Part shown: one piece after another, positions 60,119-63,845 of the stretch | Layout: every line of letters starts with the position of its first letter | Numbering within the stretch: the stretch's first letter is position 1 | From: Devosia sp. 67-54 | GTDB taxonomy: Bacteria > Pseudomonadota > Alphaproteobacteria > Rhizobiales > Devosiaceae | Direction of reading: 5' to 3' | DNA: 64,000 bases | Assembly: GCF_001899075.1 (NCBI RefSeq) | Contig: NZ_MKVA01000005.1 | Span: 1-64,000 of the forward strand | Made by a program: the position numbers and the translations under genes | The notes under the pieces: model-generated | What the model saw: only the letters and a program-made list of their open reading frames with translations | Databases searched by the model: none | What the model was told of the DNA's origin: nothing

Positions 60119-60358
60119 ATGTCGCAGGTGCAGGTGTTCTTTCGCCACAGACGGACGCTGTTGACGCGGCTCGCCGCGCTGCTCGTGCTCGGCTTCGGCG
60201 GTCTGTTGATCGTGCTGCCCCGTGCCGACGCGCATGGCGTGACCCAGGCTGCATCCGTCCAGCCCGCCGGGCGCAGCCTGCTGTCGCCCGACCGCCTCGC
60301 GGGTCCCCGCTTCAGCACGTTCTACGGTCGACCGGCCGTCACTGCGGTCGATTTCTGA
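60119..60358 (+). CDS. Small exported protein, unknown
   Basis: A 79-residue protein with a strong signal segment ('LTRLAALLVLGFGGLLIVLPRADA|HG') and about 45 mature residues, rich in Arg, Ser and Pro, ending 'FSTFYGRPAVTAVDF'. CCAGAGG lies upstream. No family recognised. Codon use fits a real gene but length limits certainty. Confidence 0.5.
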   Translation: MSQVQVFFRHRRTLLTRLAALLVLGFGGLLIVLPRADAHGVTQAASVQPAGRSLLSPDRLAGPRFSTFYGRPAVTAVDF

Positions 60359-60438
60359 ACCGCAGCTAAACGCTGCCTTGCGGGAACGTTCAACCGGGTC
60401 CCGGCATTGTTGCGCCAATGGTTCTTGGGGAGCGCAAG

Positions 60439-60558
60439 ATGCTCAAGCTGTCGTTGATCGTGATGTTCGTGCTGTCGCTGGCCACTCTCAGCCTCGCGGC
60501 GTCGGCCATTCCGTCGGTGGACGAAGGGCTGTCGCAGGTCGCCGACACGGGGCTGTGA
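60439..60558 (+). CDS. Very small single-helix protein
   Basis: A 39-residue product with one hydrophobic helix or signal ('LSLIVMFVLSLATLSLAASA') and a short acidic tail ('VDEGLSQVADTGL'). TTGGGGAGCG is well placed before ATG 60439. Upstream at 60383 a GGAAC-N17-CATT element is a weak EcfG-like promoter. Unknown function. Confidence 0.5.
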   Translation: MLKLSLIVMFVLSLATLSLAASAIPSVDEGLSQVADTGL

Positions 60559-60574
60559 CCCCCGCCGCCCTCGG

Positions 60575-60655
60575 ATGACGCCCCTGCAACTCCTGATCCT
60601 CTTGGCGGTGGTGCTGCTCGTTCTGGCGCTGGGCGGCGCCAGCCTCCTTATTTGA
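60575..60655 (+). CDS. 26-residue hydrophobic peptide
   Basis: A 26-residue single-helix peptide ('MTPLQLLILLAVVLLVLALG' then GASLLI). It begins 16 bases after the previous small gene and its end overlaps the end of the convergent acyltransferase gene. No good ribosome site; may be chance. Confidence 0.3.
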   Translation: MTPLQLLILLAVVLLVLALGGASLLI

Positions 60656-61991
60656 CGCCGGCGCTGGCGTTGGCCGGGCGCACCGGCTCGGCCGCCGCGA
60701 CCAGCGCGGCGACGGCGCGGTCGGTGATGTCGTCGACATCCGCCTTGGACAGCGCGTCGGCGGCATAGCCGACATGGATGTCGATGCCACCGCCCTGCTC
60801 GGTGGTGACGATGAACAGCGACGGCCCGAACATGTCGATGGATACCGACTCGCTGACCCCTTCGAGATGGAACGCGCCATAGTCGCCGCGGAAATTGCTT
60901 TCGCCGGCGGTGGTGATGGCGATGCCGTCGATGCGGCGGCGGTGCGTCATGGTGGGGATGGTTTCGTGCTTGTAGACGTCCCAGGTGGCGAGCTTCATCA
61001 CCGAGGCGGATTCCTGGTCGCGGGCGATGGCCGAGATCAGCTTGAACGACAGATCGCTGGCCATCGCCCAGAAATCGTCCTTGAGCGCGTGATGGGTGCG
61101 CAGGATGTCGATGTAGCAGCCGAAGGCGGTGAGCGGCAGCGCCGGCTTCATCATCCGACGCAGTTCCACCGTGGAGAGGATCGTCATCTCGTCCATGCCG
61201 AACTTTTCCCGCGTCGCGGCCAGGAAAGCCGCGCCGATGGCGCCGTGCATGGTGGTGCGGTGCGCCCGGACCGCCGCCCGGATGGCTTCGCCGACATTGG
61301 CGCCGATCTGCCGCGACACCGAGCGGCTGGCGCGCTCGGGATTGGGCACCTCGGTTTTGGGGAAGCGGACGGCCGGAACATAGGGCTTCTTGCCGCTGTC
61401 GGATTTCTTGGGCAGGCCGCTTTCGAGCGACGGCGGCAGGCCGAGCTGCACCGGCGGCAGCGCCTCCATCGCGGCGGGGTCGGCGAGATAGCGGAACAAT
61501 TCGTCGTTCAGCATCATGCCGGCCTGCGCATCGGCGATGCAGTGGTCCATGGTCGAAACCAGATAGCCGATTTCGGCGTCCTCATGGGTGCGGACCAGCA
61601 CCACGCGGATGCGCGGCAGCTTGCGCTTGTCGACCGGGATCGGGGTCTTGTTCTCCTCGGCCAGCACCCCGCGCCAGGCTTCCGGATCGGGGTCGGTCAC
61701 GACGCGGACGGGGATCCGGGCGGTGCCGCGGGTGTCGAACCAGGGCACGGGATAGACGAAGGGCGGCACGGACCGGTAGGCCATCCCCTGGTAGCGGATG
61801 TGGGAATTGAGGATCGGATGGCGCTTTTGCAGCCAGTCGAAGGCGTTTTGCAGCAATTGCGGGGTCAGGGGGCCGCGGACGCGCATGGCGCCGGAGGCGA
61901 CCAGGCCGCCGAGCATATGCAGGTAGTGGAAAATCCTCTCCTGCTCGCCGACCTGTCGCGTTTCGACCAGATTCTCGACTGAAAGCGCCAT
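60648..61991 (-). CDS. Condensation-domain/PapA-like acyltransferase
   Basis: A 447-residue stand-alone enzyme of the CoA-dependent acyltransferase/NRPS condensation fold. The catalytic HxxxD is H150-D154 ('STMDHCIADAQAG'); the N-terminal half starts 'LVETRQVGEQERIFHYLHMLGG'. The second structural motif is near 'GAIGAAFLAATREKF' and 'TTAGESNFRGDYG'. It probably transfers an acyl or aminoacyl group from the carrier protein encoded divergently at 62080 onto an amine or alcohol (inference from context). No signal peptide; cytoplasmic. Confidence 0.82.
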   Translation of the reverse strand: MALSVENLVETRQVGEQERIFHYLHMLGGLVASGAMRVRGPLTPQLLQNAFDWLQKRHPILNSHIRYQGMAYRSVPPFVYPVPWFDTRGTARIPVRVVTDPDPEAWRGVLAEENKTPIPVDKRKLPRIRVVLVRTHEDAEIGYLVSTMDHCIADAQAGMMLNDELFRYLADPAAMEALPPVQLGLPPSLESGLPKKSDSGKKPYVPAVRFPKTEVPNPERASRSVSRQIGANVGEAIRAAVRAHRTTMHGAIGAAFLAATREKFGMDEMTILSTVELRRMMKPALPLTAFGCYIDILRTHHALKDDFWAMASDLSFKLISAIARDQESASVMKLATWDVYKHETIPTMTHRRRIDGIAITTAGESNFRGDYGAFHLEGVSESVSIDMFGPSLFIVTTEQGGGIDIHVGYAADALSKADVDDITDRAVAALVAAAEPVRPANASAGVK

Positions 61992-62079
61992 TTATCCTGC
62001 CTGTTCCAACCGAGGAGCATTCCCGCCCGCTGCGAGGTTGGCTAGTATAGACCGTGTATCTGCCTGTGGGAGTTGAACG

Positions 62080-62355
62080 ATGAACGACATCGAACAGTCA
62101 ATCCTCGACCATATCAGGGGGGTCGCTGCCGCATCGCAGGTCAAGGTCGAGCGCGACACCGGCCTGCTGGAGACGGGGCTGCTCGATTCGATCAATCTGG
62201 TGGGGCTGATCCAGTTCCTCGAGGAGCGTTTCGCCATCCGCATCCCGGACAGCGACATCGGCGCCGACCTGTTCGAATCGCCGGCGACGCTGATCTCGTA
62301 TGTCGAAAAGCGGCTCGGCCGGGCCGCTGCGCCGGCCCGGGCGGTCACCGCCTAA
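62080..62355 (+). CDS. Acyl/peptidyl carrier protein
   Basis: A 91-residue carrier protein. The phosphopantetheine attachment serine is S37 in 'ETGLLDSINLVGLIQFLEERF' (split: D-S-I core). It is not the fatty-acid AcpP ('DSLD' type) but resembles the free-standing carriers used with AMP ligases. A short Ala/Arg tail follows the domain. The gene is divergent from the acyltransferase (89-base gap) and its stop overlaps the ligase stop. Confidence 0.9.
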   Translation: MNDIEQSILDHIRGVAAASQVKVERDTGLLETGLLDSINLVGLIQFLEERFAIRIPDSDIGADLFESPATLISYVEKRLGRAAAPARAVTA

Positions 62356-63845
62356 ACCGCCTCCATCAGCTTGCCGCGCAGGATCTTGCCGGTGGCGCTC
62401 TTGGGGATCTCGTCGCGGAATTCGACGATCGAGGGCACCTTCTGCGAGGCCAGCCGCTCGCGGCAATAGCGGATCAGCGCGTCGGGATTTTCCTCGGCGG
62501 CCCTGACGATCACGGCCTTGAGCTTCTGCTCGCCGGTGCGGGCGTCGGGGATGCCCACCACTACCGCCTCGGCGACGGCGGGGTGCGTGCCGAGCACCTC
62601 CTCGATCTCGAACGGGTCGACCTTGTGGCCGGCGACCTCGATGATCAGCTTGCTGCGGCCCTTGATGGTGACGTAGCCCTCTTTCGACTGGGTGCCGAGG
62701 TCGCCGGTATAGAACTTGCCGTCGCGCAGCGTCCGGGCGTTGACTTCGGGGGCGTCGAGATAGCCCTTGGTGATGGCGGGCGAGCTGACGACGATCTCGC
62801 CGCACTCCGGCCCGAACGGGTTTTCGGCCGGCTCGAGCTCGAAGGTGAGACGGGGCGCGGGAACGCCCACCGAATCCCAGGGGACGTCGGGATCGTCGCC
62901 GTCATTTATCGCGATGCTGAGGCATTCGGTCGAGCCGTAGGCCTGGGTCAGCCGGATGCCGAACCGCTCGAGGAAGCGGTCATAGGTCTCCTTGCGCAGC
63001 GCCACGCCGGCGGATTGCGCCCGGCGCAGGCGCCTGAAGCTTACCTCGTCCTTGAGGCCGGCGAGGGCGTCGAACATGAACGGCACGCCCATCAGGATGG
63101 TCACGCCCTCCGTCTCGATGGCGTTCGCGAAGCGGCCCTTGGACAGCATGAAGGGCTGGGGATCGTGCCAGTACAGCGTCGAGGCGCCGGCCGCGGCGAC
63201 GTGCGTGGCGCTCAGGAAGCCCATGGCGTGACTGCCCGGCATCATGTTGATCATGATGTCGTCGGGCTGATGCCGGCTGGTCTCGATGGCGCCCTGCATG
63301 TCGATATCCATCTCGCCGTGCGTGTGCGGCACCACCTTGGGGATGCCCGTGGACCCGGACGAGAACATGTAGAGCGCGGCGTCGTCGGGGCCGAGCTGGG
63401 GCAGGCCGGCGATGGAATAGCGCTCCAGCGCGGCGACCGAATTGTCATCGCTGCCGCCAGAGAGAAACAGCGGCAGCCGGCCGGGGCCGGCGAGATCCGC
63501 CACCAGCATCTCGGCGACTTCGGCGTAGGGCAGCGAGGCGATGACGGCGGCGACATGCGCCTTGCGCGCGGTGGCCGCCAGCTCCTGCCGTGGCGCCTGG
63601 GCATTGAGCGGAACGACCACCGCGCCGGCGGCAAACAGCGCATAGGCCAGGGTCAGCAGCTCGGGGCCGTTGATCATCAACAGCCCGACCGGCGTGCCCT
63701 TGGCGACGCCGCGCGCGATCAGGCCGCTGGCGATGTGGGCGGACCGATCGACCACCTTGCGATAGGGAATGAAGCTCTCGCCCTGGCGGAGCCCGCTCGT
63801 CGAAGGTGCCTGCTCGGCGGCGGCGACCAGCCTGTCGTAGATCAT
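62352..63845 (-). CDS. Acyl/aminoacyl-AMP ligase (AMP-binding family)
   Basis: A 497-residue ANL-superfamily ligase. Motifs: P-loop 'MFSSGSTGIPKVVPHTHG' (about 160-177), 'QAYGSTECLSIA' (A5), 'GKFYTGDLG' (A7), 'KSATGKILRG' with the adenylating Lys near the C-terminus (A10). It should activate a carboxylic acid and load it on the carrier protein S37 (inference). The substrate pocket cannot be read with certainty. It is convergent with and overlapping the carrier gene by four bases. Confidence 0.88.
   Translation of the reverse strand: MIYDRLVAAAEQAPSTSGLRQGESFIPYRKVVDRSAHIASGLIARGVAKGTPVGLLMINGPELLTLAYALFAAGAVVVPLNAQAPRQELAATARKAHVAAVIASLPYAEVAEMLVADLAGPGRLPLFLSGGSDDNSVAALERYSIAGLPQLGPDDAALYMFSSGSTGIPKVVPHTHGEMDIDMQGAIETSRHQPDDIMINMMPGSHAMGFLSATHVAAAGASTLYWHDPQPFMLSKGRFANAIETEGVTILMGVPFMFDALAGLKDEVSFRRLRRAQSAGVALRKETYDRFLERFGIRLTQAYGSTECLSIAINDGDDPDVPWDSVGVPAPRLTFELEPAENPFGPECGEIVVSSPAITKGYLDAPEVNARTLRDGKFYTGDLGTQSKEGYVTIKGRSKLIIEVAGHKVDPFEIEEVLGTHPAVAEAVVVGIPDARTGEQKLKAVIVRAAEENPDALIRYCRERLASQKVPSIVEFRDEIPKSATGKILRGKLMEAV

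What the first reader, a model, noticed from the sequence alone, without database searches (positions are those of the whole stretch)
60648..63845. Miniature assembly line: AMP ligase, carrier protein and condensation-type acyltransferase as separate genes
The three basic activities of a non-ribosomal synthetase module occur as stand-alone proteins with intact catalytic residues (ligase A10 Lys, carrier S37, transferase H150/D154). The genes face different ways and overlap at the ligase-carrier stops. This could make a small N- or O-acylated metabolite, signal or lipid that is not predictable from known clusters, and large-module search tools may miss it.
Basis: partly seen in the sequence, partly recalled or inferred. 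Interest (0 to 1): 0.7.

Follow-up and report, generated by a model that had tools for sequence, protein, structure and literature searches.

The report
Three-gene acyl-coupling cassette with alternating strands
Three separate genes that most likely activate a small acid, hold it on a carrier protein and attach it to another molecule travel together as a cassette in two unrelated groups of bacteria, in the same odd back-to-front arrangement in every copy compared.

Summary
In detail: a condensation-type acyltransferase (C, 60648-61991 -), a DltC-like carrier (62080-62355 +) and an AMP ligase (62352-63845 -), with catalytic residues present and a 4-bp overlap of the carrier and ligase stops. 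C is found in 11 of 136 genomes of the window's family (Devosiaceae by inference; carrier and ligase beside it in all 11) and in 15 of 148 Nocardia genomes. C and carrier are divergent in 28 of 28 loci compared; carrier and ligase converge in 26 of 26 with a ligase. The C-carrier promoter region is recognisably shared between the phyla by some copies. Best explanation: the ligase loads a non-amino acid onto the carrier and C transfers it to an amine or alcohol, as in the gut-bacterial fatty-acid-amide (Oaa) systems and C-1027's SgcC5, so the principle is known. The PapA/AzeD-like C, the fixed layout, the cross-phylum transfer and the P450 partner in Nocardia (12 of 17 loci) look new. Against a self-contained reading: large NRPS genes, or a piece of one, lie near 5 of 17 Nocardia trios. 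Substrates and product are unknown. New variant of a known kind, moderate interest.

The parts
60648..61991 (-). C: stand-alone condensation-type acyltransferase, 447 aa, active-site motif DHxxxDA (H150, D154, A155)
   Evidence: ORF; PapA_C 2.3e-9; nearest solved structure by sequence profile 8s6l, E 9.8e-31; predicted fold pLDDT 81.5, Foldseek rank 1 8s6l = AzeD, E 4.4e-27; H150/D154/A155 in 28 of 28 copies
61992..62079 (.). divergent C/carrier promoter region, 88 bp; TTGGCTAGTAT at 62038-62048 with TAGTAT as candidate -10 toward the carrier
   Evidence: best 16-mer match against 17 Nocardia intervals: mean 11.5 of 16 for the window against at most 11.2 in 60 shuffles; 13.6 and 13.4 for L016 and L017; L018 and L019 do not exceed their shuffles; the 11-mer is found once in the window, 0.01 expected. 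A TTGACA/TATAAT scan finds nothing
62080..62355 (+). carrier protein, 91 aa, DltC-like, LDS37I attachment site
   Evidence: PP-binding 1.2e-5; best NCBIfam match DltC 45.7 bits, below the 68 cutoff; Ser37 in 28 of 28 copies
62352..63845 (-). stand-alone AMP-forming acid ligase, 497 aa, A10 Lys487
   Evidence: AMP-binding 1.8e-62 and AMP-binding_C 5.7e-18; A10 Lys and A7 Asp in 26 of 26 copies
62352..62355 (.). 4-bp overlap of the convergent carrier and ligase stop codons
   Evidence: overlap of 4-34 bp in 20 of 26 loci (one of them, L039, corrected), stops 4-81 bp apart in the other 6 (L020, L021, L026-L029)

Best explanation
A discrete, carrier-dependent acyl-conjugation cassette. (1) A host phosphopantetheinyl transferase (one such domain was detected, of AcpS size) arms Ser37 of the carrier. 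(2) The ligase adenylates a non-amino carboxylic acid, probably aliphatic or aryl, and loads it onto the carrier as a thioester. (3) The stand-alone C enzyme, using His150, transfers the acyl group to a soluble amine (N-acyl amide) or alcohol (ester), with no second carrier. The product is probably a lipid-like or signal-like small molecule. The three genes are inherited and transferred as one unit, with the carrier transcribed from its own promoter, divergent from C. In most Nocardia copies a P450 has been added, likely to oxidise the acyl group, the acceptor or the product. Shown here: gene set, catalytic residues, co-conservation, fixed orientation, promoter conservation in part of the copies, accessory status in the genus. 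Inferred: every reaction step, both substrates and the product.
For: Trio in the same orientation in 28 loci, two phyla. Trees of C (28 rows) and ligase (26 rows) both place Nocardia as one clade beside the same four Devosia copies, which fits joint movement. dN/dS 0.10-0.60. Active-site residues invariant; DHxxxDA in 25 of 28 C proteins, as in the (D/H)HxxxD(S/A) motif reported for fatty-acid-amide C enzymes (PMC13142362 section 9). Amino-acid Asp replaced by Ala or Ser in 26 of 26 ligases. One PPTase-domain match in the genome. Ligase relatives found in the window's own genome lie in frames of 507-677 aa, none of modular-NRPS size. N. stercoris has two C-carrier pairs but one ligase match at E <= 1e-60, which fits a ligase acting in trans. 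Five genus-mates without the trio have its flanks only 0.7-2.7 kb apart.
Against: No biochemical data; neither acid nor acceptor can be read from sequence. Apart from the P450 (clustered in 11 of 24 loci) no other neighbour family recurs in more than 6 of 24 loci, so no acceptor-making gene, exporter or thioesterase is shared. Large NRPS genes lie within the read stretch of 4 of 17 Nocardia loci (L034, L037, L076, L080), with a short Condensation piece in L039: there the trio may serve an NRPS product rather than a free small acceptor. The window C is below the Pfam Condensation cutoff and PapA/AzeD-like; AzeD is titled a dehydratase, so C could do something other than acyl transfer. The window trio is more diverged from L016 (C 52%, carrier 59-60%, ligase 45%) than the flanks are (78-81% upstream, 66-74% downstream), and its dN/dS against L016 (0.34-0.60) is at the high end: relaxed or altered function in the window copy is possible. 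I lowered confidence from 0.70 to 0.65 after finding the NRPS neighbours.
Confidence: 0.65

Rival explanations
1. Type II NRPS unit of the C-1027 kind: the ligase is a free-standing adenylation enzyme that loads an amino acid (SgcC1/SgcC2 logic), and C esterifies or amidates it.
For: Carrier is related to PltL and D-alanyl carrier proteins; C is related to SgcC5 by sequence profile, E 3.3e-5, and by fold; SgcC5 also reads HHTAADA at its motif (alignment). P450s beside 12 of 17 Nocardia loci would fit oxidation of a carrier-bound substrate.
Against: Ala or Ser in 26 of 26 ligases at the position aligned to the Asp of the LgrA adenylation domain (role of that Asp recalled).
Confidence: 0.11
2. 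Tailoring or starter unit of larger assembly lines: the trio acylates, or primes, a peptide or polyketide made by a modular synthase.
For: Modular NRPS genes lie near the trio and P450 in L034 and L037, and the start of one (Condensation domains, cut by the fetched stretch) in L076 and L080; a Condensation piece in L039. Initiation by a ligase and a free-standing ACP is described for lipopeptides (abstract of PMC9113097).
Against: No NRPS relative other than the trio's own ligase was found in the read stretches of the other 12 Nocardia loci or the 11 Devosiaceae loci (two query proteins only; some stretches are 3-7 kb), and ligase relatives in the window's own genome are not in NRPS-size frames.
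Confidence: 0.12
3. PapA5-like trans-esterification of a hydroxylated lipid or quinone-like acceptor, with the carrier as acyl donor.
For: PapA_C matches 18 of 19 C proteins scanned, Condensation 15 of 19. P450, GMC oxidoreductase, TPP-enzyme and flavin monooxygenase neighbours could make such acceptors.
Against: Far below the curated PapA5 model (44.6 against 396 bits). No such neighbour is shared by all loci.
Confidence: 0.08
4. DltABCD-like surface modification: the carrier hands its group to an envelope polymer.
For: DltC is the best NCBIfam match of the window carrier, and the DltC model matches 11 of 11 carriers scanned.
Against: Below the DltC cutoff (45.7 against 68 bits). The ligase lacks the amino-acid Asp. 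C has the fold of soluble condensation enzymes. DltB and DltD were not searched for genome-wide.
Confidence: 0.04

Closest known systems
Fatty-acid-amide (Oaa-type) systems of gut Clostridia: OaaA / OaaACP / OaaC (PMC13142362, preprint; abstract, sections 3 and 9 and passages read)
   Same: Three free-standing proteins: acid-activating ligase, ACP and free-standing C; noncanonical (D/H)HxxxD(S/A) motif; no acceptor carrier protein.
   Different: OaaC's clade is described as nearest to starter C domains; here C is PapA/AzeD-like by sequence. Alternating strands, P450 partner in most Nocardia copies, hosts Devosiaceae (inferred name) and Nocardia. Substrates unknown. Gene orientation in oaa clusters was not checked.
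C-1027 type II NRPS SgcC1 / SgcC2 / SgcC5 (SgcC5 named in passages of PMC4425429; structure 4znm; SgcC1/C2 roles recalled)
   Same: Discrete adenylation, carrier and condensation proteins; free-standing C.
   Different: Part of an enediyne cluster with an amino-acid substrate (recalled); here the amino-acid Asp is absent and no product cluster surrounds the window trio in the stretch read.
AzeD of Pseudomonas aeruginosa (PDB 8s6l)
   Same: Closest solved relative of C by sequence profile (E 9.8e-31) and by fold (TM 0.77-0.79).
   Different: About 22% identity; titled a dehydratase; reads PHIIADG at the motif (alignment).
PapA5 acyltransferase (1q9j)
   Same: PapA_C domain; fold match at rank 11; carrier-dependent acyl transfer (recalled).
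   Different: Far below the curated PapA5 cutoff.

Membership tests
Fatty-acid-amide (Oaa-type) system | ligase, ACP and C encoded as three free-standing proteins side by side | tested here: met
   26 of 28 loci hold all three; L038 begins at a contig edge (its genome has a partial ligase match elsewhere), L036 is a second C-carrier pair in a genome with one ligase match
Fatty-acid-amide (Oaa-type) system | (D/H)HxxxD mostly followed by Ser or Ala in C | tested here: met
   DHxxxDA in 25 of 28, NHxxxDA in 2, SHxxxDA in 1; motif definition from PMC13142362 section 9
Fatty-acid-amide (Oaa-type) system | C belongs to the FAA clade next to starter C domains | not testable with these tools
   no OaaC sequence was reached; indirect sign against: window C is below the Condensation cutoff and its best Pfam match is PapA_C
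Fatty-acid-amide (Oaa-type) system | fatty acyl donor and free small-amine acceptor | not testable with these tools
   needs biochemistry
Type II NRPS (SgcC1/C2/C5 kind) | amino-acid-type adenylation pocket with the conserved Asp | tested here: not met
   Ala or Ser in 26 of 26 at the position aligned to the Asp of LgrA; role of that Asp recalled
Type II NRPS (SgcC1/C2/C5 kind) | free-standing C of the condensation fold | tested here: met
   Foldseek: SgcC5 4znm_A rank 18, E 2.9e-19, TM 0.54-0.55
DltABCD | carrier above the DltC equivalog cutoff | tested here: not met
   45.7 bits against 68
DltABCD | DltB and DltD present | not tested
   no search for them was made
PapA5 / PDIM transferase | score above the curated PapA5 model | tested here: not met
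   44.6 bits against 396; the PapA_C gathering cutoff is met
Fatty acyl-AMP ligase (FAAL) | FAAL-specific insertion that blocks CoA use | not tested
   the ligase carries the ordinary AMP-binding_C domain; no FAAL alignment was made

The most novel reading that the evidence does not exclude
The cassette is an independent invention of the ligase/ACP/C acyl-amide logic, built on a PapA/AzeD-type acyltransferase. It is a self-contained 'plug-in' that crossed from Devosiaceae-like alphaproteobacteria to Nocardia with its alternating three-strand layout and its own promoter intact, and was in places recruited beside an NRPS there. The divergent and convergent arrangement itself (carrier on a separate promoter, convergent with the ligase end) is selected because the carrier dose must be set apart from the two enzymes. 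It makes a family of acyl conjugates used for communication or envelope tuning that standard cluster mining does not name.
Probability: 0.23. Interest if true: 0.65.

Novelty: new variant of a known kind. Interest (0 to 1): 0.5.

Why it matters
It would extend carrier-dependent fatty-acid-amide or ester synthesis from gut Clostridia to Devosiaceae and Nocardia with a different class of condensation enzyme, and offers a three-protein system that can be reconstituted in one tube. The strand layout held across a phylum-level transfer is an unusual natural experiment on why gene orientation inside a tiny pathway is kept.

Tried and rejected
A single-protein scan of genome contigs found nothing; the alignment-based scan was needed. 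Plasmid relatives of C (Nostoc, Calothrix, Streptomyces; 24-27% identity, 4 records) showed no ligase-carrier trio among their annotated neighbours (that gene table is incomplete, and the Streptomyces match lies in a gene annotated FAD-dependent monooxygenase next to an NRPS), so they were set aside as distant C-family members. Wider samples gave almost nothing: order sample 4 of 397 genomes including the window, the other three weak and partial; class sample 2 of 385 including the window, the other weak and partial; order of Nocardia 1 of 397, the query genome itself. In these three calls at most four candidates per genome were scored and the genomes were thinned, so occurrence is a lower bound. 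The ten literature searches listed no paper that I recognised as about this trio in Devosia or Nocardia; I saw listings with abstract beginnings only, except PMC13142362 (abstract, sections 3 and 9, passages), PMC4425429 (passages) and PMC10880069 (passages). Considered and rejected: chance grouping; ordinary operon (orientation); decayed genes (intact frames and residues; dN/dS). A consensus promoter scan of 61900-62450 found nothing, so the promoter reading rests on conservation only. The midpoint-rooted trees place Nocardia inside the family's diversity, but the root is not shown, so the direction of transfer is inference; window, L021 and L029 are long branches, and in the C tree the fork that joins Nocardia with L016-L019 has 86/91 support only.

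Rows dropped or changed: the 10 loci that are not Nocardia appear to be the same contigs (same lengths) as copies, and were counted once. L039's carrier/ligase overlap printed as 91, probably because the match ran past the stop; from ORF coordinates it is 4, and I counted it so. Six of the 15 positive Nocardia genomes were already known, so 15 of 148 may be too high as a frequency.
Full report
OBSERVATION. The three ORFs are real and at the stated places: C 60648-61991 (-, 447 aa), carrier 62080-62355 (+, 91 aa), ligase 62352-63845 (-, 497 aa). Pfam gives PapA_C for C (2.3e-9), PP-binding for the carrier (1.2e-5), and AMP-binding (1.8e-62) plus AMP-binding_C for the ligase. No NCBIfam model passes its curated cutoff for C (4 matches) or carrier (14); for the ligase the 25 shown of 103 matches are also all below theirs.

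CO-CONSERVATION. The window is the start of a 1.2-Mb contig of a 4.2-Mb genome. A search of its family finds C in 11 of 136 genomes, with carrier and ligase beside it in the ten relatives as in the window. Contig sizes and titles from the genome scan name these as Devosia and other Hyphomicrobiales or Alphaproteobacteria assemblies, so the window is probably a Devosia and the family Devosiaceae (inference). The same scan, built on an alignment of the family, also returned 8 Nocardia loci at 46-49% identity. A search of that genus gave 15 of 148 genomes, six of them known beforehand. I compared 28 loci: 11 Devosiaceae including the window, and 17 Nocardia (16 genomes, one with two loci).

ARCHITECTURE. 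In 28 of 28 loci the carrier is divergent from C, and in 26 of 26 loci with a ligase the carrier and ligase converge. The two without a ligase are L038, which starts at a contig edge (its genome has a ligase match covering query residues 1-326), and L036, the second C-carrier pair of Nocardia stercoris, whose genome has one ligase match at E <= 1e-60. Carrier and ligase stops overlap by 4-34 bp in 20 of 26 loci (L039 counted as 4, not 91 as printed) and are 4-81 bp apart in L020, L021, L026, L027, L028 and L029. An alternating layout kept in two phyla is unusual for three genes that should be co-expressed.

PROMOTER. The C-carrier interval, measured between extrapolated first residues, is 44-192 bp. 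In L016 and L017 it matches the 17 Nocardia intervals at a mean best of 13.6 and 13.4 of 16 bases, against at most 11.9 and 11.3 in 60 shuffles. The window reaches 11.5 against 11.2. L018 (10.5 against 10.9) and L019 (9.7 against 11.8) do not exceed their shuffles; the six deeper copies were not put in this test. The shared core reads ATTTCAGGTC...GAAATTGGCTAGTATG; the window keeps TTGGCTAGTAT (62038-62048), expected 0.01 times by chance in the window. TAGTAT is a plausible -10 for the carrier; a strict sigma-70 scan finds nothing, so this is a reading from conservation only.

HISTORY. Trees of C (28 rows) and ligase (26 rows) each make Nocardia one clade (100/99 and 96/100 support) next to the four Devosia copies L016-L019 (fork 86/91 in the C tree, 99/97 in the ligase tree), with other Devosiaceae copies deeper under midpoint rooting. 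The simplest reading is one transfer of the whole unit, probably into Nocardia; the direction depends on the root. dN/dS is 0.10-0.60 in 30 gene-pair comparisons; those of the window with L016 are 0.43, 0.34 and 0.60, and high dS makes deep pairs rough. In the window and L016-L019 the trio lies between a conserved molybdopterin-reductase region and a deaminase-like gene (name recalled); in the sixth copy of the genus, G007 (L021), the trio lies on another contig than that region. In five relatives without the trio whose two flanks could be read (L107, L108, L110, L111, L114), the helicase and deaminase-like genes are about 0.7-2.7 kb apart with no trio match between; L112 and L113 showed only one flank and L109 was a 1.3-kb contig end. 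The trio is thus an accessory cassette in the genus. Window flanks are 78-81% identical to L016 upstream and 66-74% downstream, the trio 45-60%: the window copy is fast-evolving or was replaced.

NEIGHBOURS. In Nocardia a cytochrome P450 (PF00067, 4.9e-25 for L037) is near the trio in 12 of 17 loci, on either side, with a remnant in L039. L040, L041 and L074 instead carry a TPP enzyme (PF02776; MenD-like by recall), and L038, readable on one side only, neither. No P450 match lies in the stretches read around the 11 Devosiaceae loci (four of these stretches are only 3-5 kb). L020 has a flavin monooxygenase just after C. Against a self-contained system: L034 and L037 have large NRPS genes (2115 and 2800 aa read), L076 and L080 the cut start of one (two Condensation stretches each), and L039 a short Condensation piece, all within the fetched stretch; the L037, L076 and L080 starts are about 79% alike. 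With two NRPS query proteins no further NRPS was found at the other 12 Nocardia or the 11 Devosiaceae loci. Apart from the trio and P450, no neighbour family recurs in more than 6 of 24 loci.

MECHANISM. The ligase has Ala or Ser in 26 of 26 copies where the LgrA adenylation domain has the A4 Asp (alignment); from recalled knowledge that Asp binds the amino group of amino acids, so the substrate is probably a simple carboxylic acid. The genome has one PPTase-domain match, enough to arm the carrier. C is predicted with pLDDT 81.5; Foldseek's first match is AzeD (E 4.4e-27, TM 0.77-0.79), with PapA5 at rank 11 and SgcC5 at rank 18. Its motif is DHxxxDA in 25 of 28. In the fatty-acid-amide systems of gut Clostridia three free-standing proteins do what is proposed here, with a (D/H)HxxxD motif followed by Ser in 42% and Ala in 36% of sequences, and free amines as acceptors (PMC13142362, sections 3 and 9). 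SgcC5 is a named precedent for free-standing ester formation (PMC4425429 passages). I therefore commit to ligase -> acyl-carrier -> C -> N- or O-acyl conjugate of a free small acceptor, at 0.65 (0.70 before the NRPS neighbours were checked). Amide against ester is open, and in some Nocardia the acceptor may be an NRPS product.

NOVELTY. The principle is known. New, as far as the ten literature searches and the genome searches show, are the Devosiaceae/Nocardia cassette, its PapA/AzeD-like C, the fixed alternating layout with a partly conserved promoter, and the P450 variant. Membership in the Oaa clade could not be tested, because no OaaC sequence was reached.

Noticed in passing
L037:12898-21300, L034:14909-21256, L076:16013-18001, L080:2-2146, L039:6425-7372: NRPS genes or pieces near the trio and P450 in 5 of 17 Nocardia loci; the trio may feed or tailor an NRPS product there.
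   Followed up: partly
L036 and L037 (one contig of Nocardia stercoris): Two C-carrier pairs about 30 kb apart, each with a P450, but one ligase match at E <= 1e-60 in the genome: possibly two products fed by one ligase.
   Followed up: partly
L039:7966-8208 and L034:7694-7987: P450 remnants beside the ligase; L034 also has a full P450 on the other side of the trio, so the P450 is gained, moved and lost around the trio.
   Followed up: partly
L040:6462-8105, L041:11497-13140, L074:9690-11333: A TPP enzyme (PF02776, MenD-like by recall) next to the trio in three Nocardia loci that lack the P450, on different sides of it.
   Followed up: no
L020:7952-9466: Flavin-containing monooxygenase gene directly after C in a deep Devosiaceae copy.
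   Followed up: no
60358-60648 of the window: The helicase-like gene that precedes the trio in L016 and sits at this site in relatives without the trio is missing from this place in the window; whether it is elsewhere in the genome was not searched.
   Followed up: no
60648-63845 of the window against L016: Trio proteins are 45-60% identical while the syntenic flanks are 78-81% upstream and 66-74% downstream: replacement or fast evolution of the cassette.
   Followed up: partly
61992-62079 and the same interval in Nocardia loci: ATTTCA...TGAAAT forms a dyad in several Nocardia copies (for example L038, L040, L074, L079): a possible operator; the regulator is unknown.
   Followed up: no
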